Shown piece after piece: positions 9,768 through 58,213 of a stretch of 58,556 nt of DNA. Within the stretch, counting starts at the first letter, position 1, and the number at the start of each line of letters is the position of its first letter. Made by a program: the position numbers and the translations under genes. Source of the stretch: Halobellus captivus (GTDB lineage: Archaea; Halobacteriota; Halobacteria; Halobacteriales; Haloferacaceae); NCBI RefSeq assembly GCF_007655485.1, contig NZ_VJXQ01000007.1:20706-79261 (forward strand), given 5' to 3'. Under the pieces are notes generated by a model that worked only from the letters and a program-made list of their open reading frames with translations, was not told where the DNA came from and made no database searches.

Positions 9768-9827
9768 AGAACCCATCCAGGATTTCGAGACGAAAGGGAT
9801 AACCGACCAGTCTAGAGTAGCAAACGT

Positions 9828-29497: not shown

Positions 29498-29922
29498 GCG
29501 TGGATGGAGATGGGGTTGAGGGAACCTCAGTGGACGATCGTTCAGCGTTATTTCGCTGTGGAGACGGTCCTCGGCCGGGCTTGCTGGCTGTATAAGTCTC
29601 CCGTGATGAGTGCACGGGGGAGAGCCTTGCGCCACAGGGGGGGGAGGCGGCATCACACACCGAAGAGTGCGATTCGGTTGAATATTTTGAGAGGTGAACT
29701 TCACAAGAACTGATGCCATTGCACACGATTTTCGGGACCGTATTCGAGAACGCAATCACGAGATAGTCTCAGCATGCCCGTCGAGATCGGTGTCGTAATT
29801 GAACACATCAGCGTACGTCGGTTCGGTGACCCCCGCACCCCTCTCAGGGGTTCAACAAACAGGATGGCGTAGCGTTCGGCAACGTATTTGGCAGTTGCAA
29901 CGTACAGTCCACATAATTGAGG
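29498..29922. other. Gap with an orphan leader palindrome and a possible gene remnant
   Basis: No intact gene in 425 bp. On the minus strand a short frame after the palindrome reads EPTYADVFNYDTDLDGHAE then a stop at about 29757; it has codon use like a real C-terminus but no proper start. An alternative 35-aa ORF (29701-29808) in another frame looks non-coding. Confidence 0.5.
29832..29860 (-). promoter_or_regulatory. Leader palindrome element without an intact gene
   Basis: CCCGCACCCCTCTCAGGGGT followed by TCAACAAAC on the plus strand, one of the best-preserved copies. It faces the gap 29498-29822, where no full gene exists. Confidence 0.65.
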
Positions 29923-33182: not shown

Positions 33183-33229
33183 ATCAGTGATATAACCGAC
33201 GAGTACAAATCGGTAATGGTCGAGCCGCG

Positions 33230-34159
33230 TCACTCGGCTTCCTGGACCGTCTCGAGGAGCGAGACCGCGAGGCGAGCGGCGTCTTCCGCGGTCTCCCCGA
33301 GGACGTAGGTAATGGGTTCGATCCCGAATGCGCCGCTGTGGTAGATGACTCGCGGAACGACATCCCGAGACGCGAACCGATCCAGGAGTCGCTGGTTCCG
33401 GTCATCGTACTCGGCGTCGAACTCCATCGGGTCGAGCCCCCGGGCCCGAGCGGTCGAGAGGAGCGCATCGTCGGTTGCGATGTTGACCGCACCACGTAGC
33501 CCGTCGTCCTGGGCCATCGCAGCTAGCACGACCGTCGCGACGTGTCGCGATGCCCCGAATTCCGGGTTTGCTGGGATTTCGACGCGACCGTCGACCGCAT
33601 AGATCCGCCCGGGAATCGCTGCAACCTCGGAAACGTCGTTCGCACCGGGGAGCGCAGATCCGACGTTCGTCCCGACGTTGGGGACGTATGTCGCCATCCC
33701 GGGTGCTGTCGCAAGGATGCGTGCCGCCGTCCGGACGTCCGTCAACGTCTCCCGTTCTGCGGCGAGGCGCTCGTCGGTGCCACGGACACAGAGGTCACAG
33801 CCGAGACCGGCGAGCGAGGGCATCGCCTCCTCGTGCAGTTCACACACCGGGCCACGGTCTTCAAACGCCCGAACGAGCGCGAGCAGTTCGTCGAGCGCCT
33901 CGTACCCATCCATGTGTCCGGAGGCGAACCCCTCGGCGATACGCGTAACCGTCTCGGCGGTCAGCGGATGGTCTTCGATGCGTTCTTCGACTGCCACGTC
34001 GCCGCTGATGTACTTCGAGACGGCGGCCTGGGAGACGCCGATATGTTCCGCCACCTCTTGCTGAGTCATCCCACGATTAGCCAGTTCCCCGGCAAGACAG
34101 ACACGGATGGTGGGGAGGACCCGCTCAACGACGATCTCGCTCGGGAGGTGGAGTGACAT
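33230..34159 (-). CDS. thiR: ThiR: HTH regulator with ThiN-like ligand domain
   Basis: A 309-aa protein. HTH at about 10-60 (RGMTQQEVAEHIGVSQAAVS), a short Cys motif (CELHEE...CDLC), then a ThiN-type domain (about 130-305): VPNVGTNVGSALPGAND, GRIYAVDGRVEIP, GASRHVATVVLAAM and GIEPITYVLG. Archaeal ThiR proteins of this architecture bind thiamine phosphate through the ThiN domain and control thiamine genes. I use the ATG at 34159, as the extension to 34444 runs through the promoter region of the divergent permease. Its ThiN half is a paralogue of the one in thiDN next door. Confidence 0.92.
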   Translation of the reverse strand: MSLHLPSEIVVERVLPTIRVCLAGELANRGMTQQEVAEHIGVSQAAVSKYISGDVAVEERIEDHPLTAETVTRIAEGFASGHMDGYEALDELLALVRAFEDRGPVCELHEEAMPSLAGLGCDLCVRGTDERLAAERETLTDVRTAARILATAPGMATYVPNVGTNVGSALPGANDVSEVAAIPGRIYAVDGRVEIPANPEFGASRHVATVVLAAMAQDDGLRGAVNIATDDALLSTARARGLDPMEFDAEYDDRNQRLLDRFASRDVVPRVIYHSGAFGIEPITYVLGETAEDAARLAVSLLETVQEAE

Positions 34160-34325
34160 ACGGATAGGATCAGTTGCCCCACAATAAATCGTGCCCACCG
34201 GTGAACGAAGTCCGTATCTCATCGAAACCGTACGCATCGAGTGACACAGGCCTAACCGGGCCAGGCCGACTCCTCGGCGTCCGCATCGGGGTACTTTTTT
34301 ACCCAACCCAATATTCTCTGGTAGT

Positions 34326-35639
34326 ATGACTAGCGAATACTCACTTGAGGTCGGGACAGTCCGCGAGTATTTCGGCGCGATGGGGCCCTCCTGGGTCGCG
34401 GGGGCAATCGCCGCCGGTCCAGCGACGATGGCGAGTCTAATCACCGCGGGGGCGATCTTCGACTATCAACTCCTCTGGGTTGTCGTGCTCTCTGCCGTCG
34501 CTGGCACCCTAGCACAGTACCTCGCGATGCGGCTGGGGCTGCTTACTGAGCGGGGAATTGTCGGCGTCGTCGAGGACCATCTTGGAGAGACCTGGGCGTG
34601 GATCCTGGTCGCGGACGTCGTCATCGCGGCCGGTGTCGCCCAGCTCGTCATCATGAAGACGGTCGCTTCCGTTTCGGCGACGATCACTGGGATTGACCCA
34701 CGCCTCTGGGGCATTGCCTGGGGCGGCATCCTCGTTTTGGGTCTGGCCGGTCAGGGATACCGATTCGTCGAGCTCTTCGCGAAGCTGCTAGTCACCGCGG
34801 TCGTCCTGGCCTTCGTTGCCTCACTATTCGTCGTCTCGATCGACATCGGCCAGGCTACCCAGGGGTTGATACCGACGCTGCCCGGCGGCAGCGCACTGGT
34901 CGCTGCAGGCATCCTCGGGGGCGCGGTCCACATCACGCTTATCACCATGCACTCCTACACGATGCGAGCCCGGGGCTGGACGGAACGTGACTATGACCTC
35001 GCGACGGTGGATGTACTCGCGTCGATGCTCGTCGCGTTTGGCATCTACAGCATCGCCATCTTCCTTGTCACAGCGAGTACTCTGACCGATCCGGATCTGA
35101 CGACCGTCGGTGCAGCCCAAGCCCTCGGACCTCTGGTCGGCCCGGCCGCCAAGTGGCTGTTCCTGCTCGGTCTCGGCGCCGCTGCCGTCTCGACGCTCGG
35201 TGGCAACACCATCGTTCCGCCGTTCCTCGTTGCCGACAAACTTGGCTGGGGCACGACCGTCGAGGATACGCGGTACCGGGTGCTCCTCGCACTCTTTGCT
35301 GTGTTATCGGTGCCGGGTGCGTTCATCGGCGGTGAGGTTATCGGCCAGCTCGTCCTCGTTCTGGCTCTTGGCACGGTTGGCACGCCCTTCGCCATCGCCG
35401 TCGTCCTCTATCTGTTGAACGCTGAGAGTGTCGGCGCCTCGAACTCAACGCTCGCGAACCTCGGCGGGCTTGCCTTACTCGCCGTTTCGGGCGGCCTTGC
35501 GGCCAACTTCGTCAGGGAACAGATCGCGACCGGCCTCGATCTGCTTTCCGGACTCGTACTCATATTCGCGCTCGTTCTCGCTGCCGCGACGCTCGTCCTC
35601 TTTGGACAGTACGTCCGCGAGGAGGTGCCTCTAGCGTGA
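34326..35639 (+). CDS. Nramp-fold permease lacking the metal-binding motifs
   Basis: A 437-aa transporter with about eleven TM helices and an Nramp/SLC11 pattern (AGAIAAGPATMASLITAGA, TLAQYLAMRLGLLTERGIV, GQGYRFVELFAKLL). In Nramp metal carriers TM1 has DPGN and TM6 has MPH. Here TM1 reads AGPATMAS and TM6 reads VHITLITMHSY, so the metal ligands are missing. It starts divergently from thiR (166 bp) and leads the thiamine-locus operon, so the likely cargo is a thiamine precursor or a metal other than Mn/Fe (inference). Confidence 0.8.
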   Translation: MTSEYSLEVGTVREYFGAMGPSWVAGAIAAGPATMASLITAGAIFDYQLLWVVVLSAVAGTLAQYLAMRLGLLTERGIVGVVEDHLGETWAWILVADVVIAAGVAQLVIMKTVASVSATITGIDPRLWGIAWGGILVLGLAGQGYRFVELFAKLLVTAVVLAFVASLFVVSIDIGQATQGLIPTLPGGSALVAAGILGGAVHITLITMHSYTMRARGWTERDYDLATVDVLASMLVAFGIYSIAIFLVTASTLTDPDLTTVGAAQALGPLVGPAAKWLFLLGLGAAAVSTLGGNTIVPPFLVADKLGWGTTVEDTRYRVLLALFAVLSVPGAFIGGEVIGQLVLVLALGTVGTPFAIAVVLYLLNAESVGASNSTLANLGGLALLAVSGGLAANFVREQIATGLDLLSGLVLIFALVLAAATLVLFGQYVREEVPLA

Positions 35640-36187
35640 CTGGGCTTCCGTTCCCGTTGACCGGCTCGACGCTGATCGTCGGGCCGTCCCAGGCCGGAAA
35701 GACTCGTCTCACGGCCCGCGCCCTCGAGGCCTGGGTTGGACGGCATGGTACTGATGGGGTCGTGGTTCTGGAGTTCGCACCCGAACTAGAACGCGACGGC
35801 CAGATCCTTGGCGGTCGCTTGGACCGGTTCACTACTATTCCTGACGGTGTCTGGCACGGCGTCCTCGACGCGCATGCCCCCCGGGCGGAAGGGGCCGACG
35901 AGGCAGAATCGGCGACACTTGCGAAGGACAACGCCACCCGTGGTATCGAGGTTCTGGACACTGCCCCGGATCCAACCGCTGTCTTCGTCAACGACGCGAC
36001 CATCCCGCTCCAGCACACGTTCGTCGAGGTGGATACGCTCACAGGCTACTGCGACCGTGCGACATGTGCTGTTCTCAACGCGTTCGATTCCGACGAGCTT
36101 GGAACGGACGACCCGGTGTCACGTCAGGAACGGGCAGCACTGTCGGAACTCCGTTCTTGGGCGAATCGGACGATCGAACTGGACTGA
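35636..36187 (+). CDS. P-loop NTPase in the thiamine locus
   Basis: A 183-aa protein with Walker A GPSQAGKT at about residues 15-22 and a plausible Walker B (GVVVLEFAPELE). The GTG start overlaps the stop of the permease gene by 4 bp (GTGA), so the two are coupled. The ATP/GTP-binding fold is clear; the role is not. Such a small ATPase coupled to a secondary transporter may regulate it or handle the imported compound. I do not recognise a named family. Confidence 0.75.
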   Translation: MTGLPFPLTGSTLIVGPSQAGKTRLTARALEAWVGRHGTDGVVVLEFAPELERDGQILGGRLDRFTTIPDGVWHGVLDAHAPRAEGADEAESATLAKDNATRGIEVLDTAPDPTAVFVNDATIPLQHTFVEVDTLTGYCDRATCAVLNAFDSDELGTDDPVSRQERAALSELRSWANRTIELD

Positions 36188-36330
36188 CCGTCGGAACCGA
36201 AGCGGATCTATTGCATCGGTTCGATAGTGAAATCGCCGTCAACTACAGGTTTGGAGCCATTGACAACGTTCGAGATATAACTAACTAATATAGGCAAGTT
36301 ATATCCTCTCTCGGACGGTACGGCTCGCTA

Positions 36331-36990
36331 GTGCCATTCAGCGATACCCTTCTTGAGGCGGGACAGGATGTATGGGCGGCCCAGAAGGAGCACCCCTTCG
36401 TCCGCGAACTCGCGACCGGAACTCTCGACGAGGCGGCGTTCGAGCACTGGATCAAACAGGATTACCGCTACCTCCTGGACTACGCTCGGTTGTTCGCGAT
36501 TGCGGGCACGAAGGCCACCAACGAGAAGACGATGACGCACTTACTCGGCGTGGCCCACCAAGTGCTCGACCACGAAATGGATCTTCACCGTGGCTTAGCG
36601 GCCGATTACGGAATTTCCGACGGCGAGCTCGAAGCAGTCGAGAAGGCGCCCACATGCGTGGCCTACACAAATTTTTTGATCCGAACGGCGTACGAGGGCT
36701 CGATTGCGGAGATCGCGGCCGCACTGTACCCGTGCATGCAGGGCTACCTCGACGTCGGAGAGCATATGGCGTCGCTCGCCACCGACAAACACCGGTACAC
36801 ACCCTTCATCGAGATGTACACCAGTGACGAGTTCCGTGACGCGACAAGCTGGTGTCGCGACTTCGTTGACCGATGTGGCGAACAGTCTCCCGGTGAACAC
36901 GACGCTATGAGGGAGGCGTTTCTAACTAGCGCGAAGCTCGAGTATCGGTTCTGGGAGATGGCCTACACGCAAGAAGGGTGGGGTCTATGA
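36331..36990 (+). CDS. tenA: TenA family aminopyrimidine aminohydrolase, Cys type (TenA_C)
   Basis: A 219-aa protein. The active-site Cys is in ALYPCMQGYLDVG, with the conserved DYRYLLDYARL and EYRFWEMAY segments. TenA hydrolyses aminopyrimidine breakdown products of thiamine to HMP, feeding ThiD. GTG start at 36331, placed by family homology (FSDTLLEAGQDVWAAQKEHPFV). A TATA-like run (ATATAACTAACTAATATAGG) lies about 40-60 bp upstream. Translationally coupled to the second TenA gene. Confidence 0.92.
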   Translation: MPFSDTLLEAGQDVWAAQKEHPFVRELATGTLDEAAFEHWIKQDYRYLLDYARLFAIAGTKATNEKTMTHLLGVAHQVLDHEMDLHRGLAADYGISDGELEAVEKAPTCVAYTNFLIRTAYEGSIAEIAAALYPCMQGYLDVGEHMASLATDKHRYTPFIEMYTSDEFRDATSWCRDFVDRCGEQSPGEHDAMREAFLTSAKLEYRFWEMAYTQEGWGL

Positions 36991-37724
36991 CGGACGTCCC
37001 CGATAGCTACGACGACTACCGGGCCACCGTCAGCGACCCCCGGTTCACTGACTGGCTGCGGGAGCGTGCCGAACCCGACTGGACGAACGCCGTCGATCAT
37101 CGGTTCACCCGTGAGATCGGTAGTGGCGCGCTCTCCGAGACGGTCTTCGCCGACTACCTCATCCAGGACTATGCGTTCGTGGACGTCCTCGTGAGTACGT
37201 TCGGCTTCGCAGTGGCCCAAGCACCCGATGTCTCAGCGAAGCGTGCGCACGTCAAATTTCTCGACACCCTGACTGACGAGGAAAACGATTACTTCGAGCG
37301 TTCCTTCGACGCGCTCGGCGTCGACGACGCCCGGTGGGACCAGCCAGAACTGTCCACGACCACAGCCGCGTTCGTCGACTTTCTCGGTCGTACTGCCCGC
37401 GAGGGCGGCTACGCCGAAACACTCGCAGCCATTGTTCCAGCCGAGTGGATCTACGCCGAGTGGGCGACACGCGAAGCTTCAATCCACGAAGCGACGGCCG
37501 GACTTCCGTTCTACTTCGCCGACTGGATAGAGCTGCACGCAAACCCCTCTTTCGAGGAGTTCGTGACCTGGCTCCGTTGCCAGTTGGACGCTTATGGCCC
37601 GACGGTCTCTCCTGGACGGGAACGGGAGATCGAGCGAATCTTCTGCCGGACCGTCGACCTCGAAGTTGCTTTCTTTGACGACGCCTACGCGGCCGTTGAG
37701 ACCGACGGGGAGGGTAGACAGTAA
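36987..37724 (+). CDS. TenA-like protein of the non-Cys (TenA_E) type
   Basis: A 245-aa TenA paralogue. The position of the catalytic Cys is Ala (IVPAEWIYAEWATREAS), and the adjacent Glu residues match the TenA_E subgroup, which acts on a formylamino precursor upstream of TenA_C in thiamine salvage. It overlaps the first tenA by 4 bp (ATGA at 36987); the earlier GTG at 36978 is less likely. Having TenA_E and TenA_C side by side gives both steps of aminopyrimidine salvage in one operon. Confidence 0.88.
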   Translation: MTDVPDSYDDYRATVSDPRFTDWLRERAEPDWTNAVDHRFTREIGSGALSETVFADYLIQDYAFVDVLVSTFGFAVAQAPDVSAKRAHVKFLDTLTDEENDYFERSFDALGVDDARWDQPELSTTTAAFVDFLGRTAREGGYAETLAAIVPAEWIYAEWATREASIHEATAGLPFYFADWIELHANPSFEEFVTWLRCQLDAYGPTVSPGREREIERIFCRTVDLEVAFFDDAYAAVETDGEGRQ

Positions 37725-39244
37725 TGGTTTCAACAGCTGTCGCACTCACCGCTGTCGTGCTCACAGTACTGACCGTTACCGCTTTCGGCCTATTAGCGGC
37801 TCGCGGCCGGGTTCGATCCGTCGAGGATTATATTTCCGCCCGCGACTCAGCCGGTCCTGGAACCCTCACCGCTACGATCATCGCGTCGATGATGGGCGTC
37901 TGGATACTGTTCAGCCCTGCCGAGGCCGGGGCTGCCTTCGGCGGGCTCCCGGCCATCCTCGGATACGCAATCGGGAGTGCGGTTCCGCTCCTCCTGTTCA
38001 TTCCAGTTGGCACACGCATCCGTGCCATTGTTCCGGCCGGCCACTCACTCACCGAATTCGCGTACGCTCGCTTCGGGACCGGAATGTACCTGTTCGTGCT
38101 CGTCGTGTCCGTGTTCTACATGTTCATCTTCCTCGCGGCCGAGATGACGGGGATTGCCGGCGCCCTCTCACTCGTCATCGGGATCCCCCAGTGGCAGACG
38201 GCCCTGCTCGTAGGCGGATTCGTCTTGATATACACGGCTTACGGGGGACTCGTGGCGAGCATCGTCACCGATACCGTCCAGACGCTCGTCCTGCTCCCGC
38301 TGCTCGCCCTCGGTTTCGGTGGCGCCGTGCTCGCGTTGGGCGGAACCGGTGAAATACACGCTGCAGCGATCGCCACGGACGCGCCATTGCTGGATCCGAC
38401 GTTCGGTCCCGGGCTAAAGTTCGGCGTGTACGTTGCCTTCGCCATCCTCGGTGCGAATATGCTGAACCAGGGGATGTGGCAGCGCGTCTACGCTGCCAAC
38501 GGCGAATCGTCGCTTCGGTGGGGATTCGGCGTCGCGGCCGTCGTAGTCGTTCCAATGATTCTGCTAGCCGGCTTGTTCGGTATCGCTGCGGCCGCTCTCG
38601 GCCTGACCGACTCCGGCGGTGCCAGTATCGCGTTCTTCCTCGTCCTCGAGTCAGCCTTCCCGAGTTGGGTAACGCTCGCGGTCGTCGTCCTCGCGGTCCT
38701 GCTCGTGATGAGTTCCGCGGACACGATGTTCAATGCCATCGCGAGCGTCGTCACCGCCGATCTCGCGCGGCTGCTCGACCAGCCAACCCAGCGGTCGTTG
38801 TGGGTGGGTGGACGCGCCCTCACCGGGATCGTCGGGATCGGCGCGATTGTCATCGGTTCGCAAGGGTATAGCGTGCTTGAACTGTTCCTGACGGCAGACC
38901 TGCTCGCGGCTGGAATTTTTGTCCCGTTTCTCGCCGGCCTGTATTCCGAGCGGCTTTCAGGAGCTGGGGCTATTGTCTCGAGTCTGGGTGGGCTTGTGGT
39001 CGGTGTCGCCTACTTCCCGCTCCTGCGTGGACCGGTCGCGTCGATTCCGAGGCTTGGCCCGCTGCTGCCCGCACCCGAGTTTCTACCCGCTTTTGTCGGG
39101 GCGACTGTCGTGTCAACCGGCGGGACGATTCTCGCTATTGCCCTCTGGGACGCCGACGTCGACCTCTCCAGCGTGGATCGTGATATCCGGAGCTTGGATG
39201 AACCGGTCGCCGATGGGGGTCCGAACGGGGGGGAAAACCAATGA
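37724..39244 (+). CDS. Sodium:solute symporter (SSS), probable thiamine-precursor importer (ThiV-like)
   Basis: A 506-aa SSS/SLC5 family transporter with about 13 TM helices; the RVRSVEDYISARDSAGPG start, GGLPAILGYAIGSAVP and YTAYGGLVASIVTDTVQT segments are typical. It begins 1 bp into the stop of the TenA_E gene and overlaps the 47-aa gene after it by 4 bp. SSS proteins clustered with tenA and under thiamine control have been predicted as HMP or thiamine-precursor carriers (ThiV); applying that name here rests on context. Confidence 0.88.
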   Translation: MVSTAVALTAVVLTVLTVTAFGLLAARGRVRSVEDYISARDSAGPGTLTATIIASMMGVWILFSPAEAGAAFGGLPAILGYAIGSAVPLLLFIPVGTRIRAIVPAGHSLTEFAYARFGTGMYLFVLVVSVFYMFIFLAAEMTGIAGALSLVIGIPQWQTALLVGGFVLIYTAYGGLVASIVTDTVQTLVLLPLLALGFGGAVLALGGTGEIHAAAIATDAPLLDPTFGPGLKFGVYVAFAILGANMLNQGMWQRVYAANGESSLRWGFGVAAVVVVPMILLAGLFGIAAAALGLTDSGGASIAFFLVLESAFPSWVTLAVVVLAVLLVMSSADTMFNAIASVVTADLARLLDQPTQRSLWVGGRALTGIVGIGAIVIGSQGYSVLELFLTADLLAAGIFVPFLAGLYSERLSGAGAIVSSLGGLVVGVAYFPLLRGPVASIPRLGPLLPAPEFLPAFVGATVVSTGGTILAIALWDADVDLSSVDRDIRSLDEPVADGGPNGGENQ

Positions 39245-42071: not shown

Positions 42072-43334
42072 TTACGGGTTTGTGCGCTGTTCGTTGGGAT
42101 TTGTCCCGAGTTCGGGGGCGTCTGTGGTCGAACGCCACTCGTGATTGCCCCACTGGAACCGCACGGGCCGCGCCATCGGCCTGACTTGCTTATCCGTGTT
42201 CCGCCTGAGGAACGTCTCCGAGGCGGTGAGATCTGAGTGTCCTTCGAAGCCACAGGGACAGGTCAGTGTCTCCCGATGCCGAACCGTATCCGTTTGCTCG
42301 CCACACTCCGGACATGTCTGGCTCGTCCAGGCTTCGCTTTCCTCTTCTACCGCAATTCCATGTTCCTCACAGACCGACTGAAGCTGGTCGATGAACTTCT
42401 TGAATGCCCAGAAGTTCTCTAATTTCTCGTTGATTTCAGGGGATGGTTGTGTCTTGATGACCCCCGTTAGATCGCCAAAATACACCGTTGCGATCCCTTC
42501 GTCGTACAACCGCTCGACGAGGTCACGGATGAGGTCCTTCTGGGCATGGGTCCGTTGGCGGGAGCGTTTGCGGTAAAGTCGGCGGATACGCTGGCTCGTG
42601 TCCTGATCTGGCGGCAGCTTGCACGATAAACGTGCAATCTCTTCGGTTGTTGATCGGAACTGCTCGAACAGCTCCTCACCATCGTAGAGGTATTGCTCAC
42701 CAGTAGTGGTCGTACAGGCAACGAGGTTGTTGACACCCAGATCGAGGGCGGCTTCCTCCGAAGCCAGTGGTGAATCCAGTTCCGATTCGTCAATCGTCAC
42801 TGGTTGATATGCCCGATAGGTGTCTTCGACCTCATCATACTGGATCTCCAGCTCACCCTGTTCGCCGGACCATTTCGGATCTCCACGGACCTCCAATCGA
42901 AGGCGCTCGAAATAGCCCATGTGGTACTCGTCTTTGAGGTCCTGGCCGACCGGAATTTCGACCCGGGAGTGTTCGCCCCACTGGATTTCGTATGAGTCGT
43001 TTCGAACGAACAGCCGGAGGTCACGCCCGTCGTCTGCGTTTCCCCAGTAGCCGGGCGGGGACGCGTCCTCACCGCTTTCCAACAGCGCGAAAAACGAGTT
43101 CCAGGCGGCGTTATTCTTCCGTGTCACCGTCTGGACGCCGGCCGCGCCGAGCTGGCCTTTGTATTGGCCGCGAAACTCATCTGTCTCCCAGATGCTTTCG
43201 TCGTCGAAGAACTGCTGCCGGCGGGCATAGGTCAGCTCGTTCCAGAAGCTCGCCGTCGCGTCCATAACCTCCTGTAACAGGGCCTCATCCGACTCCGAGC
43301 GGGGCCGCACTTCGAAGGTGTTGGTCCGCTTCAT
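42072..43334 (-). mobile_element. tnpB: TnpB of an IS200/IS605-type (IS1341-like) element
   Basis: A 420-aa TnpB, the RNA-guided nuclease ancestor of Cas12. RuvC pieces: [13 protein letters not shown] (first Asp), [10 protein letters not shown] (second motif), [11 protein letters not shown] (third Asp). The zinc finger is [13 protein letters not shown]...CPCGFEG. In most TnpB proteins the second motif has a Glu before D-L; here it is G-D-L, which appears usual for haloarchaeal members. No TnpA is nearby, so this is a stand-alone tnpB. Its ATG overlaps the stop of a 64-aa gene (ATGA), an odd coupling for a transposon gene. Confidence 0.9.
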
Positions 43335-48450: not shown

Positions 48451-49332
48451 CTACTCGAGACTGGGTCCGTAGCGAGCCGAGCCACACACCTGGCACTCCC
48501 AGATCGGCTGTCCCGTCCACGCCTCATCCGGTACCGACTCGTGGGTCTTGAACCGATGGTCGGTCGCCCGTCCACAGGGTTGACAGTCGAGTTCCTGAGT
48601 CGTCGGTACCGACGACTCTTGCCGATCAGCTGCAGCTTCGCCAGTAGATTCGGTCAGCGCCATCGCTGGGACCAGCCACACCGCGTCGTCGGCGCCGTCG
48701 AGGACCGCGTCGAGACGCGACGCGTCGCGGAGGCCATCTCCACGCTGGTCGTAGAGCCGCGTCGGGGGCTGCTCCTGACGCTCCGACGCGTCCTGCCCGT
48801 GCCACCCAGTCCGGTCACGGGCGGCACTGTGAAGCCGCTTTCCCTCTGCTGACGCCACCTGTACCGCGTCGGGGAGTGAGGGCCATTGCTCAGCCAACTG
48901 GCGCGCCGGCGCCTCGTCGAGGTCGTAGATGAGCGTGTAGTCGTCGACGGCCGGCTCCGCCTCGTTGGCGGAGAGGAGGTTCGCCGCGGCGCCGCCCTTC
49001 GCCACGGCGCCGTAGAACGTGGTCGACTCGACGACCAGGTGGACGATGCCGAGGCACGTCGTCGACGCTGCCTCGTCCGTGCCAGTCACGTCACCACCGA
49101 GATGGTTGCTGAGACAGAACCGGCATTTCGTCTGGCCATCTGGGACTGACGCCCCACAGGACCGGCACTCGCCGTCGGCGGCCGTCGGCGCATCAGGGTA
49201 GCCACCAGAGCTCGTCGCGACGCGTTGCCGCCGGGGGGCACCCTCACAGCCGTCGTCCAGCCTTGTATCCGGAATGTGGGACGCCTCGCCGGTCGGCCGC
49301 AGTTCCTCAAAGTCGGAGTAACGACCGTTCAT
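48451..49332 (-). CDS. Haloarchaeal plasmid zinc-ribbon protein ('biosurfactant protein 1'-type)
   Basis: A 293-aa protein with an N-terminal zinc ribbon (CRSCGASVPDGQTKCRFC), a central alpha/beta part (CLGIVHLVVESTTFYGAV) and a C-terminal ribbon (CQPCGRATDH...CQVCGSARYG). Similar haloarchaeal plasmid proteins carry the label 'biosurfactant protein 1', which I do not trust as function. I choose the ATG at 49332, because a TATA box (TTTAAA, 49368-49373) would place the transcript start near 49345, downstream of the alternative ATG at 49353. Confidence 0.75.
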   Translation of the reverse strand: MNGRYSDFEELRPTGEASHIPDTRLDDGCEGAPRRQRVATSSGGYPDAPTAADGECRSCGASVPDGQTKCRFCLSNHLGGDVTGTDEAASTTCLGIVHLVVESTTFYGAVAKGGAAANLLSANEAEPAVDDYTLIYDLDEAPARQLAEQWPSLPDAVQVASAEGKRLHSAARDRTGWHGQDASERQEQPPTRLYDQRGDGLRDASRLDAVLDGADDAVWLVPAMALTESTGEAAADRQESSVPTTQELDCQPCGRATDHRFKTHESVPDEAWTGQPIWECQVCGSARYGPSLE

Positions 49333-49367
49333 AGAGTAGTCTACAGAGAACATGGCTCGTCTTAGTG

Positions 49368-49426: not shown

Positions 49427-50353
49427 TCAGGCGACCTGTTCCTCCAACGTATCCCGGTGTGCCCGAACAGTCGCCTTCGAGGCGTTCGCCACGTCCGCGG
49501 CCTCGGATTGCGTCAGCCATCGGCCCTCTTCGCGACCGGCCTTGTAGAGGCAGGCTGCGGCGAACCCGGCCGGATGAACGCCCGTCGTGACGCCCCGATC
49601 CTCGGCCTGCTCCGCCAGGGTTCGGGCCCGCTGTCGAATTTCGTCCGGACACTCGAGGTCCGAGGCGAGTCGCGGCACGAACATGCTGGGGGAGACGGGC
49701 TCAGCGGGGAGGCCCAGCTCTTCGTTCAGCGTTTTGTACGCGTTCGTGACTCGTGACTCCGCGACGCGGGCCATCTCGCTGACGTCGTCCACTAACCGCG
49801 AGAGGCCGTTGCACCGGCAGGCCCCGTAGACGCTGGCCGCGGCGATGGCCTCGATGGATCTGCCACGAAGCAGATCCTCGTTCTGGGCGCTCCGGAAGAG
49901 CTGGCACGCCTGGTCACGGACCGAATCGGAGAGTTCGAGGGCACTCGCCAACCGACGCACTTCGCCCAACCCGTGTGCGAGATTCCGTTCCGCTTTCGAG
50001 CGCCAGCGACCACGGGTCTGCTCACGACGCATCCGCGCGAGTCGCCGTCGCTTCTGCCCCGAGAGTTCGTTCCCCTTCGCGTCGGTACCGCACCCGATCT
50101 CCGTCGACAGGCCGCGGTCGTGGCGGGCCGCAGTGAGTGGAGCACCCGTTCGCTCGCGCTCCTCGTCGTCGTACGCCCGCCACTCCGGCCCGTGATCGAT
50201 ACGCTGTTCGTCGATAACCAGGCCACAGTCCTCGCAGACCGTTTCGACCGCGTTCGTGGTGACTCGGCCGTCGCACTCGGGACACTGATTCGCACTCGAT
50301 TCCGTTCGGACGTCTTCGTCGAATCCGCTCTCGTAGATGTCTCTGGTTGCCAT
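49427..50353 (-). CDS. tfb: Transcription initiation factor TFB, plasmid-encoded
   Basis: A 308-aa TFB: N-terminal zinc ribbon (CPECDGRVTT...CEDCGLVIDE), B-reader/linker (EWRAYDDEERERTGAP), and two cyclin-like repeats (about 115-205 and 215-305) with SIEAIAAASVYGACR and GFAAACLYKAG. TFB recruits RNA polymerase after TBP binds TATA. Haloarchaea carry several TFBs that tune gene sets, so this one may serve the plasmid's own promoters, including its own leader type (50391). I use the ATG at 50353. Confidence 0.95.
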   Translation of the reverse strand: MATRDIYESGFDEDVRTESSANQCPECDGRVTTNAVETVCEDCGLVIDEQRIDHGPEWRAYDDEERERTGAPLTAARHDRGLSTEIGCGTDAKGNELSGQKRRRLARMRREQTRGRWRSKAERNLAHGLGEVRRLASALELSDSVRDQACQLFRSAQNEDLLRGRSIEAIAAASVYGACRCNGLSRLVDDVSEMARVAESRVTNAYKTLNEELGLPAEPVSPSMFVPRLASDLECPDEIRQRARTLAEQAEDRGVTTGVHPAGFAAACLYKAGREEGRWLTQSEAADVANASKATVRAHRDTLEEQVA

Positions 50354-50390
50354 CGTTTTCACCGTGTTCAGGGACCCGCCAGTACAGCGA

Positions 50391-50506: not shown

Positions 50507-51328
50507 ATGATTAACCGACGGACAGCTGCTCTGTCGTCAGCAATCGTAATCGCTGTCGTCTTTGCTGTTTTCCTGACGTTCATACTCCACACTGTCTTCG
50601 ATCTTGGGGCCACGTCGCTCATTTCATTCCCTCTCTCTTTCGTTGGGACGTTGCTCACGGTTCAACAGTACTTAGAGAAACCAGCGGAAGGGACGAAATT
50701 CCAAGTTATCCAACACAAGAACGTAACGACACAGACTATGCCCGAAAAATCGGATGGTGGACGGAACTGGTCAGAAATGACCGATGAAGAGATTGTAGAA
50801 GAAATGCAAAGTAGTCCGGATTGGCGGAGCTATCAGGACACCGCCTTCAAGAATTATCGGTCACTTGGGAGGGGATTTAATTGGTTGTCCTCAGTCGCGC
50901 TCAAGTCTCAGTACGTCACCAGACAGAGAATTATGCTCCTTCTTTTTGCTATCTCAACTATCGGTGGGATGTGGCTCTTTCTCATTTTCGCTGAGGTGAT
51001 TGGGACCTCTTGGCCAAACCAGAACTATATGACTACAATTGCGCAATTGTCACCACTTTCGATCGATATGGGAATCGCAATCATCTCTATTTTCCCTGCA
51101 GTGATACTTCTATTCACCCCACTGGCGTACCTGCAATTCAAGTCAGACTACACGTGTCCGGACTGTGGACACTCATTCGGTCTGGCAAGTGAGGGCCGGT
51201 ACTATCGTCCAAATAAGGACGTACAAGAGACAGACAATGGGCGAGAAGTGAACGGTCACCGAATCCTCCGTTGCGAATACTGTAATAATCTCGAATTAGA
51301 AGAAACGAATTGGTCACCTCAGAACTGA
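50507..51328 (+). CDS. Membrane protein with C-terminal zinc ribbon, island gene 1
   Basis: A 273-aa protein: two N-terminal TM helices (AIVIAVVFAVFLTFILHTV; SFPLSFVGTLLTV), a soluble acidic helical region (about 75-125), two further TMs (about 140-210) and a C-terminal ribbon CPDCGHSFG...CEYCNNLE. Codons are clearly A/T-richer than in the rest of the window. No family recognised. It precedes a second membrane protein by 11 bp, so the pair is an operon, convergent with the KAP NTPase gene. Confidence 0.75.
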   Translation: MINRRTAALSSAIVIAVVFAVFLTFILHTVFDLGATSLISFPLSFVGTLLTVQQYLEKPAEGTKFQVIQHKNVTTQTMPEKSDGGRNWSEMTDEEIVEEMQSSPDWRSYQDTAFKNYRSLGRGFNWLSSVALKSQYVTRQRIMLLLFAISTIGGMWLFLIFAEVIGTSWPNQNYMTTIAQLSPLSIDMGIAIISIFPAVILLFTPLAYLQFKSDYTCPDCGHSFGLASEGRYYRPNKDVQETDNGREVNGHRILRCEYCNNLELEETNWSPQN

Positions 51329-51339
51329 TTCATCCTAGT

Positions 51340-52176
51340 ATGATAGAAAACTACGGAATAATATCCTATTCTGAGTTTCAAGATCGACTCTATCGGTTCT
51401 ATCGCCTATTTGCAGGAGTCGCTGGCCTGACAGTGGTAGTCGCTCTCCCAGCACTGACTGGTCTACTCTACACCACGCTGTACGACAAGATACACAGTAC
51501 AGGTGATGAATTCGGATATTATTCTTTCTGGCGAGACGACATCGGTGATCTGCTTGTGTGGCTCTCTATCGCCCTTTTCGTTGCAGTAGCAGCAGTCTAC
51601 TTCCTTCGTCTGCTCTTCTGGCTTCGCCATGTGATGCAGACATCGTGGAAAGAACATACGCCACCGTTTGAAAGCGCCGAGAAAGAGAAAGATTCCATAG
51701 AGAAACCAGTAGCTGATCTTCTTCCAGAGGCGGAGAGGAGGGCTGTGCGGTGGCTAAAACGCGGTCTCTCCTTCTACGCCGGAACTGTGATTCTCTTAAT
51801 TAGCTTCGTACTGACTGTGGAGTATTTTGGTTTCACCGGCGCAATTAACTCATCAGTCGAAGGGAATCTCATCCCTCCGGAGTGGATGGAATATATCGCC
51901 AAAACAATCAAGATGCTCCCCTTTGTCGGGGACTTGTCTATATTCCTCGGAATGCTACCCGGAGATGGACCGCTCCAAAAATTCCTCATTAACGGTGCTG
52001 CAGTATTCTTCACCGTAGCCATACGGAACCTATCCTATATCTTCGAGAATATCGGATTTGTCTATGGAAGAGCACAGTGGTGGCGTCCGAATCGTTTTGC
52101 GGTATACTTGGCAATAACTGGATCTGGTCAGGTAGTTCTTGTCCTCATAGGTGTACTGTTTGGTTTTGGTGGATGA
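51340..52176 (+). CDS. Polytopic membrane protein, island gene 2
   Basis: A 278-aa protein with about six TM helices (for example AGLTVVVALPALTGLLYTTL; DLLVWLSIALFVAVAAVYFL; FLINGAAVFFTVAI). I use the ATG at 51340; the track-like longer frame from 51310 overlaps the upstream stop. A charged loop (about 108-145: SAEKEKDSIEKPVADLLPEA) separates the helices. Unknown family. It ends 19 bp before the KAP gene's stop, tail to tail. Confidence 0.75.
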   Translation: MIENYGIISYSEFQDRLYRFYRLFAGVAGLTVVVALPALTGLLYTTLYDKIHSTGDEFGYYSFWRDDIGDLLVWLSIALFVAVAAVYFLRLLFWLRHVMQTSWKEHTPPFESAEKEKDSIEKPVADLLPEAERRAVRWLKRGLSFYAGTVILLISFVLTVEYFGFTGAINSSVEGNLIPPEWMEYIAKTIKMLPFVGDLSIFLGMLPGDGPLQKFLINGAAVFFTVAIRNLSYIFENIGFVYGRAQWWRPNRFAVYLAITGSGQVVLVLIGVLFGFGG

Positions 52177-52195
52177 GCCGTATTTCCTCACTAGA

Positions 52196-55100
52196 TTATA
52201 ATTTCAGATGGTGCTCCCGGATTTCTTCAATTTTGGTTTCATCTATTCCGTCGTGCTCCTCAAGGGTAGCAAGCTTCTTTTTGGTGGTCTGGTGGAGCTG
52301 GTTCTGCGAGTTCTGTTTCAACATTCCTTCGATACGAGTTAGGACCAGATCCTCCTGCCCGGCGAGGTCGTCGAATGCGGCAAGTTGGCCCACGATGTCC
52401 TGTTTCTGTTGCCATCCGACGTTTCCATCTGTCAGTTTATCACTCAGCCGTTGAATGAACTCTTCGTGTGCGTTTGTAGCGAGGTCGTCGGTCACCGATT
52501 GGAGAACTTTGACCAAGTTATCAGTCGGAACCTGTTGATTCTGGTCACTCACTTCGTCTTCCAGAATGGAGAGTACGTTTTGACCCACCTTGCGACGATG
52601 ATTAGACGTTAGGTTTGATTTGACTTCATTCCATACACGGTAGAACGCTTGCTTGTCCTTATTGTTCCCACGCGCAAGGTCGGTTAGCCGACTGAGGAAC
52701 AGTTCCTGATCACTGTCGGTAAGGTCAGTAAACACTTCGGCAACAGCAGTCAGATAGATCTGTTTACTGCTCGTGTCGTTTGTCTTGTTTACTTTTTTAA
52801 GACATGTACTGACTACCTTGTCTTGAACACTCTCGAATCGCTTTGGTGCGGTGGAAAACATCTCTGCACCAAGCTGTGCACGAGAGTCATCGTTGTTGTC
52901 CAAGATCTCAATCAACTTCGGCGAGGTCAGTTCTTCGTCGAACTCCTTAGGTATCAGCGTTAAGACTGTGTTGGTGAGGAGCCCCGTGTTCGTATTCTGG
53001 TCCGGGAACGGGTCCAGTGCTGCCGTCACTGCGTCTTCTGAATCAAGCAGGGGCACATCGTATTGTTGAGCCCACTTCAGATACTGCTGTCCGGTTCCAC
53101 CCCAGTTCTGAATCTGCTTCATACATTCCTGACGGAATCGGTTCTGGTCACTCGACGAGAGAGTGTCATAGTGATAGAAGAGCGTCTCAACCAGATTCTT
53201 CTCATTATTACTCGGGGCATTCACCATCCCGTGGAATTCGTTGTAGAGATGACTCGCAGTTAGACGTGGTAGGTCAGATTCGATCTTGAGGAGGATATTC
53301 GAAATACTGTCGTTGATATGGTTGATATTGTTATCTTCAACTTCGTTCCGGAGATCAAACAATTTTTCGATGAACGTACCTCGGGCCTCAGTAGATGCAT
53401 CCGAGTCGAACTTCTGGTAGTAGTCCTCGTTCTCAAACTGACGTTCGTTATTACCCAACTCAATCAGCTTGATGGCCTCCGTCAGCAGCTTCGTGGTGGC
53501 GAATTTGTCCCGTGCGGCTGCCGAACTGTGAATTTTGTCGAGCGCCGTTTTGAACACGTCTTCCTGCTGGTTCTCACGTAGCTGAACAAGACTCTCGGTC
53601 AGGGGTCGTTTCGCAGACTCCGGAATTCCTTCGGCGTGTTTAACGAACGCATCAAGGATATTCTCCTGAAGGGTTTCTGAATCAGCGACCAGTTCACCAT
53701 ATGCCCCAAAGAGCACACGCGAGTCACGTGGTTGCATTTTGAGTATCATCGGGAACGAGATGCTGGGATCCAAATCTTCCAAGAAGTGCCGCCTGTCTAC
53801 GGAGACCAGGTACTCACTTACCATTCGGGATACCTGAGTCTGGGCGTCGTCATCCAGAGCATCGAATACCTCCATCAACCCCTCGATGATGTTGAAGAGC
53901 TCGGAATCAAGATGACTCCACTCGTCAAGCGTATCGTCAATTGCCTCGCGGTATGGCCCGAAGTCACCCTCGTCTTCAAATAGGGCATCCAGTTCGTCGC
54001 GAACCTTATCGACCTGTCGCGCACGTAGATCTTCGACGAAGCGGTCACCGTCTTCAAGTGTTAGCGTGTACGGTGGCTCGCTCAGATAGATGAATCGGCG
54101 TGGGTTATTGTCTGTGATATACCGTGTAGATGACAGAAACTCTCGAAGCCCCTCCACGGACTTTCCGTTCCCGTCTTGTGTTGGCTCGAAATGTGATGCC
54201 AGTTCTTCCTCTCGTTCCGGGTCCATCACACGACCGGCGAAGTAGTCATTGAACTCCTCAAGTAGACGTGGGTTCGCTTGTAGGGACCGATAGAACTCTG
54301 GAAAGTCCTCCTGCAGTATTGAGATCTTCGCCAAGAACGGGAGGTTGCCGGTAATCACTCCTTCACGCATTCGTTGAGTGTCCTCTATTTCCTCGGCCAA
54401 CATCCGTAGCGTCGTCAGACGGTTGAGTGCCTGTTTTATACGGCGCGGGTTTCGGACGTATGCTTTCGTGATGACCGAGAGAACCTCCTCATCGTAACTG
54501 TCCTTGAGTTGATCGTTTAGTTCAGCAGCATAATCGGAGATAGCGTCACTGGTGAACGGCGGAATACGGACGTGGGCTTGGAAGAGTTTCCGTAGGAACT
54601 CCCGCTCATTTTCGTTCTCTTCGAAGTATTCCCCTCGGTCGATAGACTGGATGTGGCTGAGAAGCGCCTCATCGTCGCAGGGAATAATATAGAGGCAGCG
54701 GTCGTTGCCCATGAACGTCTTGAGTGAGACCAGGACATCGTAGACGGTGTCGCTCTCGCACCGGTCCAGATTGTCGACGGAGATGATGATCTGTTCGTAC
54801 TCTGTCTTTTCCATCAGCTCGTCCAGCATTTCGTCGAAAAGCTGCTCATACGCACCGGACCAATCATTACGTGGATACCGCTGACGAAGGGTCGATGTCG
54901 CGTCCTCGACCTGCTTCGCCATGAAGATGAAAAGACTGAGGAACAGAGGCAAGATCGCAATCTGGAGGATGCTATTAGCTGTCCCCATTAGATCCTGGCC
55001 CGGAGTGAAGATACCGAAAGCGTTCAGGGCATTGATGACTACCCCTGTTATCAGGATTACTGCGGTTATCGCGACAATCGCCGTTACGAACTTCGATTGG

Positions 55101-55546
55101 GTAAGGAGTTGCTGTGCATACTCACGCAGATCTGGGTCATCGCTACTGGTATCTTCCGTAATGTCGTAGAGTTCCTCTGTGATGTAGTCCTCTCCGAGAA
55201 TACCGTACTCACTATCGACTTTCGTGTCTGTCTTCTCACCGAGCTCGTGGTCGATACCGAGAAGCAGGTCTGTCCGAATCGACTCTTCCGCGTGTGTCCA
55301 TGCATCGAATTCTACACAGACAGTGTTCTCAAACTCGGGATTGTCACTCAGTCGGTCGAACAGGAGGTTGATTATTGAGCTCTTGCCCGTCCCCCACTTC
55401 CCGAATACACCGATGTTCCATCGTGGCTCTGCGTTCTCCAGTATCTGTTCAAGTGCGTCGACGTACTCTTGATGCTCGAACCGATCTTGGTTTGCCGACT
55501 CTATCGGCTCATCAGAGAGAAAGACACGTCCATCGTCACCGGTCAT
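52196..55546 (-). CDS. KAP family P-loop NTPase with transmembrane insert, large C-terminal helical region
   Basis: A 1,116-aa protein. Walker A GKWGTGKS at 49-56; two TM helices inserted at about 153-172 and 192-210; Walker B IIISVDNLDRC at about 253-263. This is the KAP layout, where the TM pair sits inside the NTPase and holds it on the cytoplasmic side of the membrane. Residues about 450-1116 are a long alpha-helical, probably repeat-like region of unknown role. KAP NTPases include phage-exclusion proteins such as PifA. Start ATG 55546; A/T-rich like the two genes beside it. Confidence 0.9.
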   Translation of the reverse strand: MTGDDGRVFLSDEPIESANQDRFEHQEYVDALEQILENAEPRWNIGVFGKWGTGKSSIINLLFDRLSDNPEFENTVCVEFDAWTHAEESIRTDLLLGIDHELGEKTDTKVDSEYGILGEDYITEELYDITEDTSSDDPDLREYAQQLLTQSKFVTAIVAITAVILITGVVINALNAFGIFTPGQDLMGTANSILQIAILPLFLSLFIFMAKQVEDATSTLRQRYPRNDWSGAYEQLFDEMLDELMEKTEYEQIIISVDNLDRCESDTVYDVLVSLKTFMGNDRCLYIIPCDDEALLSHIQSIDRGEYFEENENEREFLRKLFQAHVRIPPFTSDAISDYAAELNDQLKDSYDEEVLSVITKAYVRNPRRIKQALNRLTTLRMLAEEIEDTQRMREGVITGNLPFLAKISILQEDFPEFYRSLQANPRLLEEFNDYFAGRVMDPEREEELASHFEPTQDGNGKSVEGLREFLSSTRYITDNNPRRFIYLSEPPYTLTLEDGDRFVEDLRARQVDKVRDELDALFEDEGDFGPYREAIDDTLDEWSHLDSELFNIIEGLMEVFDALDDDAQTQVSRMVSEYLVSVDRRHFLEDLDPSISFPMILKMQPRDSRVLFGAYGELVADSETLQENILDAFVKHAEGIPESAKRPLTESLVQLRENQQEDVFKTALDKIHSSAAARDKFATTKLLTEAIKLIELGNNERQFENEDYYQKFDSDASTEARGTFIEKLFDLRNEVEDNNINHINDSISNILLKIESDLPRLTASHLYNEFHGMVNAPSNNEKNLVETLFYHYDTLSSSDQNRFRQECMKQIQNWGGTGQQYLKWAQQYDVPLLDSEDAVTAALDPFPDQNTNTGLLTNTVLTLIPKEFDEELTSPKLIEILDNNDDSRAQLGAEMFSTAPKRFESVQDKVVSTCLKKVNKTNDTSSKQIYLTAVAEVFTDLTDSDQELFLSRLTDLARGNNKDKQAFYRVWNEVKSNLTSNHRRKVGQNVLSILEDEVSDQNQQVPTDNLVKVLQSVTDDLATNAHEEFIQRLSDKLTDGNVGWQQKQDIVGQLAAFDDLAGQEDLVLTRIEGMLKQNSQNQLHQTTKKKLATLEEHDGIDETKIEEIREHHLKL

Positions 55547-56118: not shown

Positions 56119-57081
56119 TTACCGCGTATCGAGTCGGAGCGGCGACGCTCGTTCCCAGAGATGGTGGTGTTCAGCACACACCGTAACGAGGTTATCCAGC
56201 CGGTTGGCCCGCTCGAAATCCACCTCACTCTCGTCGTCGCCGAAGACGCTTAGCGGTCGGATATGATGCACGTGGAGTCCTCTCGTGAATGATTCGAGAT
56301 GCGCCTCCTGCGTCCACTCACAGCCCGGCGTTTGACAGGTATAATCGTCGCGTTCAAGGGCTTTCTGACGTTGTTCATCCCAGTTGTCCCCGTACTCGCG
56401 CCACTCGTGGACTGGCTGTTCTTTCCAGTTGTGATGGTCTGGGCCAGCTGGACGGCCGACCGGTTCGTAGCCAGCGGCTCGGATCGCGGCTTGCCAGCCC
56501 TCCCAGCGAGTAAAGTAGGGTCGATGCGAGAACTCTCCGTGGTCTTTCATCTCCTGCGCTGTCGGAACCTTTCCTAATTCGTCGGCCAGCCGATGAATCT
56601 CTTCGAGTAATTCCGCATCCGAGATCCGATGCCGCTGGTTGGGGTCGTAGCCTGCTGCCTCGAGTGCTTCGTTCCAGCTTCCAAAGCGATTCTGTGCGAT
56701 TGTGACCGTGAACTCGCCCTCCGAGCGCATGTCGGCCGCCGTTGGCGGCGTCCCGTCCTCCGTTGCGAGCCGTCTAATTTCGTCGAGAAGTGCGTCTTTG
56801 GATACCCGGTGCTGCTTCACCGGTTCGTATCCCGCTTCCTGGAGTGCCTCTGCCCAGCTGCCAAATCGGTTTTTGTACGTTCCAGCTGAATACGCTCCTA
56901 GTTCATTCATCTCTGTAGTTGTTGGAGAACGACCCAGATGGTCGACGAGCCGATCTATCTCGGTCAGTAACTTCGTATCAGAGATCCAGCGGCTGTGGCT
57001 ACTGTTGTGGCCCCCCAGCGCGTCCTGGGTGTCGAAGGATTTTCCACAGACATCGCAGGTTAGGTCACGTTCACCCGTCAT
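56119..57081 (-). CDS. C2H2 finger + three homing-associated repeats + HNH endonuclease
   Basis: A 320-aa paralogue of the protein at 22524. C2H2 finger CDVCGKSFDTQDALGGHNSS, three homing-associated repeats (about 32-85, 88-140, 142-195, each ending F-x-x-W-x-(E/A)A(L/I)-x-x-AGY), and an HNH domain (CQTPGCEW...VHHIRPLSVF...NLVTVCAEHHHLW). One repeat more than its paralogue. The repeats probably read DNA sequence, so a change in number would change target length. I use the ATG at 57081, downstream of a leader palindrome (57105). Confidence 0.88.
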   Translation of the reverse strand: MTGERDLTCDVCGKSFDTQDALGGHNSSHSRWISDTKLLTEIDRLVDHLGRSPTTTEMNELGAYSAGTYKNRFGSWAEALQEAGYEPVKQHRVSKDALLDEIRRLATEDGTPPTAADMRSEGEFTVTIAQNRFGSWNEALEAAGYDPNQRHRISDAELLEEIHRLADELGKVPTAQEMKDHGEFSHRPYFTRWEGWQAAIRAAGYEPVGRPAGPDHHNWKEQPVHEWREYGDNWDEQRQKALERDDYTCQTPGCEWTQEAHLESFTRGLHVHHIRPLSVFGDDESEVDFERANRLDNLVTVCAEHHHLWERASPLRLDTR

Positions 57082-57104
57082 CTGTCCTACCCGGAGCGCT
57101 CGTA

Positions 57105-57134
57105 CGCCCACACCCTTCTCGGGGCCAGATAAAC
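57105..57134 (-). promoter_or_regulatory. Leader palindrome element (second HNH gene)
   Basis: CGCCCACACCCTTCTCGGGG followed by CCAGATAAAC on the plus strand; start codon 24 bp away. Confidence 0.6.
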
Positions 57135-57229
57135 TCGCTCGAGTCGCACACTCCTTCCCCCGGTTTGCCGGATAAATGTTGGACTGGTGAGCGAGGTCGT
57201 GGCTGCGCGCGCAGCGAAGCGAGCACGGA

Positions 57230-57266
57230 GCGGTGGGTGGGGCGGTGGGGTCTGGGTCGGTCCGGC
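57230..57266 (+). repeat. G-quadruplex-type repeat, copy 2 (5' side of the HNH gene)
   Basis: Runs GGG, GGGG, GGGG and GGG within 25 bp; 31/37 identical to the copy at 56027. It lies between the HNH leader and the stop of the RPA-like gene. Confidence 0.7.
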
Positions 57267-57297
57267 ACACAGCAAAAAAGAAGGCTGCGTCAGTTGG

Positions 57298-58164
57298 CTA
57301 TTCTTCCCACCACCGACCGCGCTCTGGGAACTCGATCCTGCTCCAGCCCGTGATGGCGAGACTGCACCGTCCCTGGTACCAGTTTTTCTTGACCGCTCTG
57401 AACCGGACTGTCTGCCCTTCTCGAACCACCGTCTTCTTGCTCTTCTCCCAGATCGTGAATTTCGTACGCCCGCTTTCGTCTTCGATGAGTCCGACTTGGG
57501 CGATTGCTGGGGAACTGGGATCCCAGAGTTCGCTCACTGTGCCTTCGACCGTCACCTCACCGACCGGAACGTCCGGCACGTCCGCGATGGGCACGATCGC
57601 CCCCGGCGCCGCCTTCAGCTCTTCGAGGGTTTCCAGCACCGCCTTCGTGACGTCCCGCCCGCGCTGCACCTTCTCGGCCAGCTGTTTCGCGACGACCGCC
57701 CTCGACCAACCGCCCTGCACTTCGTCGCTGATCCGCATCGCCTGCTTGTTCACCTTCGCGAGTTCGTCTTGCGTCAGCTTCTCACGGGGATCCGTGCGCT
57801 CCGTCGGCGCCGGCTCGTCACGACCACACAGCTCGCTGACGACCTCCCGCGTGCGCTGCTCCCGGCCCTTCTGCGTTCCCAGCTCGGCCTGGGCACTGAT
57901 GCGCTCCAGTTCGGCTTCCCGCGCCTGAATGCGCTCTTCCTGTTCGAGGGTGACTCCGTGAATCCGGTCCTCGCTCGTGTCCGCGATCCCGTCCGGATGG
58001 TTCGCATCCACCTTCGCCTGCGTCTCCTGCTCGACTGCCGCCTCGAACTCCGGCGTCTCGTCGACGACCGGGAAGCCGTCTTCATCGACGGCCTGACCGC
58101 CCGCTTTCTCGAATGCCTGTTCATCGACCGAAACGACCTTTCCGCTAGCGTTGTTACTAGACAT
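57298..58164 (-). CDS. RPA-like single-strand DNA-binding protein (OB fold), plasmid type
   Basis: A 288-aa protein. The C-terminal half (about 190-285) is an OB fold of RPA type: VPVGEVTVEGTVSELWDPSS, then GLIEDESGRTKFTIWEKS and VREGQTVRFRAVKKNWYQG, read in parts. The N-terminal half is acidic and helical (about 75-150), perhaps for protein contacts. Binds ssDNA in replication or repair. I use the ATG at 58164 (MSSNN). Common on haloarchaeal plasmids. Confidence 0.85.
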   Translation of the reverse strand: MSSNNASGKVVSVDEQAFEKAGGQAVDEDGFPVVDETPEFEAAVEQETQAKVDANHPDGIADTSEDRIHGVTLEQEERIQAREAELERISAQAELGTQKGREQRTREVVSELCGRDEPAPTERTDPREKLTQDELAKVNKQAMRISDEVQGGWSRAVVAKQLAEKVQRGRDVTKAVLETLEELKAAPGAIVPIADVPDVPVGEVTVEGTVSELWDPSSPAIAQVGLIEDESGRTKFTIWEKSKKTVVREGQTVRFRAVKKNWYQGRCSLAITGWSRIEFPERGRWWEE

Positions 58165-58213
58165 TGGAATCACTCACAAGGTGATTTCCGACGAAGGCGC
58201 TCACGCGCCGACA

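What the first reader, a model, noticed from the sequence alone, without database searches (positions are those of the whole stretch)
50507..55546. A/T-rich island with a 1,116-aa KAP NTPase and two membrane proteins: candidate defence system
The three genes form a compact convergent unit with base and codon use unlike the flanks (many AAT, ATT, TTT codons), a sign of transfer. The large protein is a KAP NTPase with a TM pair inside the NTPase fold and a 650-residue helical C-terminus. Both partners are membrane proteins, one with a zinc ribbon. KAP NTPases are linked to phage exclusion. The combination with these two membrane partners does not match any system I can name.
Basis: partly seen in the sequence, partly recalled or inferred. 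Interest (0 to 1): 0.8.

Follow-up and report, generated by a model that had tools for sequence, protein, structure and literature searches.

The report
Plasmid-borne KAP NTPase, probable antiviral gene
A salt-loving archaeon's plasmid carries a large membrane-anchored ATPase of a type known to block viruses; the two membrane genes beside it are a separate optional insert, so this is probably one more single-gene defence protein and not a new three-gene system.

Summary
The three ORFs and the A/T-rich island are real. The KAP protein has the family's hallmark layout: Walker A, two membrane helices, Walker B, then a helical-repeat C-terminus. The three-gene unit is not supported. Across the haloarchaeal genomes searched, KAP relatives occur in about 14 genomes. 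Only one other, Halolamina pelagica on a near-identical plasmid segment, has the two membrane genes beside it. Halonotius terrestris has a 90%-identical KAP gene next to the same TFB gene, with about 230 unrelated bases where the membrane genes sit here. Both membrane families also occur elsewhere without KAP. The KAP gene instead belongs to a conserved plasmid block (KAP, TFB, a replication-factor-A-like OB-fold protein) seen in five plasmids or plasmid-like contigs. Elsewhere its relatives sit in defence neighbourhoods: McrBC, type IIG and Mrr/HNH nucleases, methylases, helicases. Against PADLOC, 162 models matched 78 KAP neighbours but only 7 matched 120 control proteins. Best reading: a plasmid-borne, membrane-anchored sensor ATPase that excludes viruses or rival elements by itself, comparable to PifA or Tmn. 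No function was tested. It is a new member of a known kind.

The parts
52196..55546 (-). KAP-family P-loop NTPase, 1,116 aa; core of the finding
   Evidence: Pfam KAP_NTPase E 5.7e-23; full-length relatives 34-97% identical in haloarchaea
55379..55402 (-). Walker A motif GKWGTGKS (residues 49-56)
54905..55108 (-). two predicted membrane helices inserted between Walker A and Walker B (residues 147-214)
   Evidence: hydropathy; helices in the low-confidence model
54761..54790 (-). Walker B region IIISVDNLDR (residues 253-262), mostly invariant in 11 relatives
52463..53905 (-). C-terminal HEAT/ARM-like helical repeat (about residues 548-1028)
   Evidence: AlphaFold2 model with pLDDT 60-89 over the better part; matches to HEAT-repeat proteins, Z up to 14.8
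50507..51328 (+). ORF1: membrane protein with C-terminal zinc ribbon; part of an optional insert, not an established partner
   Evidence: absent from the Halonotius KAP-TFB locus
51155..51283 (+). zinc-ribbon cysteines of ORF1 (C217, C220, C256, C259)
   Evidence: invariant in six aligned members
51340..52176 (+). ORF2: membrane protein, likely ATG start (TTG at 51310 also possible); part of the same insert
   Evidence: best model too poor to use (pLDDT 43)
49427..50362 (-). TFB (archaeal TFIIB); conserved neighbour of KAP in five plasmids or plasmid-like contigs
   Evidence: Pfam TFIIB E 2.4e-36; synteny
57298..58173 (-). OB-fold, replication-factor-A-like protein; conserved neighbour of KAP
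   Evidence: NCBIfam PRK07217 E 1.3e-18; found near KAP in L004, L005, L007, L017
48451..49353 (-). conserved plasmid gene, NCBIfam MBSP1
   Evidence: E 6.1e-136; collinear with other plasmids
56119..57270 (-). HNH endonuclease with C2H2 finger and homing-endonuclease repeats, upstream of KAP
   Evidence: Pfam HNH_repeat E 1.8e-64; related gene upstream of KAP in Halonotius

Best explanation
The core is one gene, a plasmid-borne KAP NTPase of about 1,116 residues that most likely acts alone as an antiviral or anti-element exclusion protein, in the manner of PifA (F plasmid) or Tmn. Proposed mechanism: two helices inserted in the NTPase domain hold it at the membrane; the long C-terminal helical repeat binds a trigger made during infection or DNA entry; ATP-driven assembly of the NTPase then blocks the process at the membrane or stops the cell. 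Shown here: KAP fold and motifs, helix pair, helical-repeat C-terminus, patchy spread, plasmid carriage, and defence neighbourhoods of relatives. Inferred: membrane placement, the trigger, assembly, and any effect on viruses. ORF1 and ORF2 are a separate mobile pair inserted between KAP and TFB.
For: KAP domain, Walker motifs and inserted helices. The NTPase part of the model resembles RdrA, the ATPase of the RADAR defence system (Z 13.3, rmsd 4.0, 186 residues, 18% identity). Best PADLOC models are PifA E 1.1e-18, QatA 2.5e-18 and PDC-S20. Patchy spread: 11 of 391 haloarchaeal genomes in 11 of 86 genera. Neighbours of relatives: McrB (1.3e-46) and McrC (1.8e-56) beside the second KAP gene of the same genome; type IIG enzyme; Mrr nuclease; HNH; methylase; DrmD/BrxH-like helicase; HerA. 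PADLOC models matched: 162 by 78 neighbours against 7 by 120 control proteins. Papers: Tmn is a single KAP NTPase blocking phages (PMC11846954); QatA is a KAP NTPase (PMC13279940).
Against: No functional test. The PADLOC contrast counts redundant models, so one helicase alone adds 45; counted as proteins the contrast is smaller. The plasmid copy itself sits beside TFB and an OB-fold protein, not beside a known defence operon. PifA and QatA similarity is confined to the NTPase part. The NTPase region of the model is low in confidence (mean pLDDT of the model 52).
Confidence: 0.6

Rival explanations
1. Plasmid housekeeping: the KAP NTPase works with TFB and the RPA-like OB-fold protein in plasmid replication, segregation, or entry exclusion of related plasmids, not against viruses.
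For: KAP, TFB and the OB-fold gene are neighbours in five plasmids or plasmid-like contigs. In the G049 contig the backbone is 73-99% identical but the KAP-TFB zone only 36-65% with the order kept, as expected of an incompatibility or exclusion locus.
Against: Several KAP relatives lie on chromosomes or in islands without TFB or OB genes but with restriction-type genes.
Confidence: 0.25
2. Three-gene defence system as read at first: KAP senses, the two membrane proteins execute.
For: Compact tail-to-tail layout; all three kept together in Halolamina pelagica (97, 92 and 89% identical).
Against: Halonotius KAP-TFB locus at 90% identity lacks both; no other KAP genome has them; ORF1 and ORF2 families occur apart from KAP and apart from each other; opposite strands.
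Confidence: 0.1
3. KAP is a decayed or selfish passenger with no current function.
For: One relative is split by frameshift (G112); TFB of Halonotius is interrupted.
Against: Intact reading frame, with motifs and full length kept across relatives at 34-97% identity.
Confidence: 0.05

Closest known systems
PifA of the F plasmid (KAP NTPase that excludes phage T7; role from general knowledge)
   Same: plasmid-borne KAP NTPase; PADLOC PifA model matches the NTPase part, E 1.1e-18
   Different: PifA model is 720 positions and its best stretch matches residues 24-191 only; the C-terminal 650 residues are not covered; archaeal host
Tmn (single KAP-family NTPase with two transmembrane domains, PMC11846954)
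   Same: KAP NTPase with two inserted membrane helices, apparently acting as a single gene
QatA of qatABCD
   Same: KAP NTPase part, NCBIfam E 2.3e-22
   Different: 79 bits against a cut-off of 600; no QatB, QatC or QatD identified in the neighbours
RdrA of RADAR
   Same: NTPase part of the model aligns with 8hrb, Z 13.3
   Different: no RdrB deaminase identified nearby; alignment covers residues 16-328 only; low-confidence model

Membership tests
KAP NTPase family | KAP_NTPase domain above the curated cut-off | tested here: met
   82 bits against cut-off 20, E 5.7e-23
[quoted passage not shown]
   segments 147-214 between motifs at 49 and 253
qatABCD | QatA above the NCBIfam cut-off | tested here: not met
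   79.4 bits against 600
qatABCD | QatB, QatC (QueC-like) and QatD (TatD) in one operon | tested here: not met
   neighbours are TFB, MBSP1, HNH, OB-fold and two membrane proteins
RADAR | adenosine deaminase RdrB beside the ATPase | tested here: not met
   no deaminase among neighbours
RADAR | RdrA-like ATPase fold | tested here: inconclusive
   Z 13.3 over 186 residues, but model confidence is low
PifA | full-length similarity to PifA | tested here: inconclusive
   significant match, best stretch 24-191 only
Tmn | KAP NTPase with two membrane helices acting as a single gene | tested here: inconclusive
   layout met; single-gene action inferred from synteny only
Tmn | sequence similarity to characterised Tmn proteins | not testable with these tools
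   no Tmn sequence or model at hand
any defence system | protection against virus infection | not testable with these tools
   needs an experiment

The most novel reading that the evidence does not exclude
KAP and its conserved neighbour TFB form a plasmid-borne module in which the membrane ATPase senses infection and a dedicated transcription factor B reprogrammes host or virus transcription, a response route that I know of in no defence system.
Probability: 0.06. Interest if true: 0.75.

Novelty: new member of a known kind. Interest (0 to 1): 0.38.

Why it matters
It shows that long KAP NTPases with a helical-repeat C-terminus are a patchily spread, defence-associated family in haloarchaea, one copy of which is part of a mobile plasmid backbone. 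That makes an archaeal counterpart of PifA and Tmn testable with haloarchaeal viruses. It also removes a three-gene system that comparison does not support.

Tried and rejected
Viral origin: no relatives of KAP or ORF2 in viral contigs, with single proteins or profiles; ORF1 likewise with the single protein, its profile being too diverse to search; no KAP match in phage records. ORF1-NTPase pairing: one ORF1 relative (61%) lies about 200 bp from a STAND-type NTPase with a Dsr1-like C-terminus, but other relatives sit by integrases or an IS, so no rule. Apparent fusion of an ORF1 relative in G409 is an artefact of a run of N. ORF2 weak matches in many genomes (E about 1e-5) cover one stretch of about 430-aa proteins and were not counted as relatives. 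ORF2 model unusable. RNase HII hit of KAP in the PDB (E 0.007) is marginal and was judged chance. No paper on KAP proteins of haloarchaea was found. The original KAP family paper was not held. Further fetched regions L101-L104 were not analysed beyond the matches already listed.

Full report
Observation. The three ORFs are present where stated: ORF1 50507-51328 (+), ORF2 51310-52176 (+, more likely starting at ATG 51340), and KAP 52196-55546 (-). The stretch is the A/T-richest 5 kb of the window, GC 0.496 against 0.594 overall. KAP scores E 5.7e-23 against Pfam KAP_NTPase. Walker A is at 49-56, two hydrophobic segments at 147-214 and Walker B at 253-262, which is the KAP hallmark. The AlphaFold2 model is weak overall (pLDDT 52), but about 590-1000 is a helical repeat, much of it at 60-89, resembling HEAT-repeat proteins; the NTPase part aligns with RdrA of RADAR, Z 13.3.

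Where the window lies. It is part of an 88-kb contig, C19, of a 3.35-Mb haloarchaeal genome, with an Orc1/Cdc6 gene and an ArdC-like gene. It is collinear with a 97.7-kb contig (G049) and with a 50-kb contig of Halolamina pelagica (G090). In those comparisons KAP, TFB and their neighbours are part of the backbone order. Against G049 the collinear genes outside this zone are 73-99% identical (the Orc1/Cdc6 gene, 31%, is an exception), but the zone holding MBSP1 (36%), TFB (65%) and KAP (41%) is strongly diverged while keeping its order. In Halonotius terrestris KAP (90%) and TFB (88%) are close relatives, but the genes around them are 41-72% identical. So KAP and TFB travel together, and the backbone is mosaic.

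The two membrane genes are an insert. Between KAP and TFB, Halonotius has about 230 unrelated bases where the window and Halolamina have ORF1-ORF2; the TFB upstream sequence is conserved in all three. Whether ORF1-ORF2 were gained by the window's lineage or lost by Halonotius is not decided. KAP relatives were found in 11 of 391 class genomes and in three further family genomes. Strong ORF1 and ORF2 matches in a KAP genome were found only in the window's own genome and Halolamina. ORF1 relatives elsewhere lie by integrases, an IS transposase, or a STAND NTPase; ORF2 relatives lie in one other genus (Natrinema), twice beside a conserved 197-aa gene.

Defence context of KAP. The same genome has a second full-length KAP gene (36%) beside McrB (NCBIfam E 1.3e-46) and McrC (Pfam E 1.8e-56). 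Other relatives lie with an integrase and an Mrr nuclease (L008), an integrase, HNH and IetA-like genes (L009), a type IIG enzyme and helicase (L067), a methylase and DrmD/BrxH-like helicase (L076), a McrB-like gene and HerA (L075), an integrase and an AAA_5 gene (L006), and Orc1/Cdc6-like genes by reading (L071, L072). A paper reports KAP NTPases coupled with Orc/Cdc6 in defence-type neighbourhoods (PMC10853773). With 16-kb control regions from the same genomes, 78 KAP neighbours matched 162 PADLOC models at E 1e-8 or better, and 120 control proteins matched 7. The models are redundant, so this is a qualitative contrast. The control sites were drawn at random, away from KAP.

Composition. KAP genes have GC 0.41-0.51 in all hosts examined, at or below their surroundings. 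Low GC is thus a trait of the family, consistent with transfer, but it does not tie ORF1-ORF2 to KAP.

Mechanism. The most likely reading is a single-gene exclusion protein: membrane-anchored NTPase, C-terminal repeat as sensor, ATP-driven assembly leading to block or arrest. The fold, motifs, spread and neighbourhoods are shown; localisation, trigger, assembly and effect are inferred. The main rival is a plasmid function shared with TFB and the OB-fold protein; the diverged but syntenic zone fits either exclusion of related plasmids or recognition of fast-changing invaders.

Compared with what is known. [quoted passage not shown] It is not a qatABCD or RADAR system (partner genes absent; QatA 79 bits against a cut-off of 600). 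It works like PifA or Tmn at most by analogy; full-length similarity to PifA is not shown and Tmn could not be compared. Tmn is described as a KAP-family NTPase with two transmembrane domains that blocks several phages, mechanism unknown (PMC11846954).

Verdict. Observation confirmed; defence reading plausible for KAP alone; three-gene system not supported; new member of a known kind.

Noticed in passing
L073 (own genome, contig C1:962000-981000), KAP at 8022-11366: A second full-length KAP NTPase (36% identical) lies on a large contig next to McrB and McrC and near a PD-(D/E)XK nuclease gene and a UvrD-like helicase (the last by reading).
   Followed up: partly
L062:5297-10360: A 61% relative of ORF1 lies about 200 bp from, and divergent to, a 1,347-aa STAND-type NTPase whose C-terminus matches PADLOC Dsr1 (E 5.6e-17).
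   Followed up: partly
window 48451-49353: A plasmid backbone gene scores E 6.1e-136 against NCBIfam MBSP1, 'biosurfactant protein 1', and lies in the fast-diverging zone next to TFB.
   Followed up: no
window 29917-31287: Mrr-type restriction endonuclease gene, 89% identical in the collinear G049 contig, so part of the conserved plasmid backbone.
   Followed up: no
window 42072-43334: Transposon protein with OrfB_IS605 and Cas12f1-like TNB domains (TnpB-like); related TnpB-like genes lie at C19:83423-84664 and, interrupting TFB, in L004.
   Followed up: no
window 31821-39244: Cargo cluster with two ThiN-domain proteins, two TENA/THI-4 proteins, an Nramp and a sodium:solute symporter, not shared with the collinear plasmids.
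   Followed up: no
L072:9587-12860: KAP relative split into two frames (518 and 583 aa), probably a pseudogene or a sequencing error, next to Orc1/Cdc6-like genes.
   Followed up: no
L064:8387-10059 and L077:8245-9904: ORF2 relatives in two Natrinema genomes are each paired, divergently, with a conserved 197-aa membrane-anchored protein.
   Followed up: no
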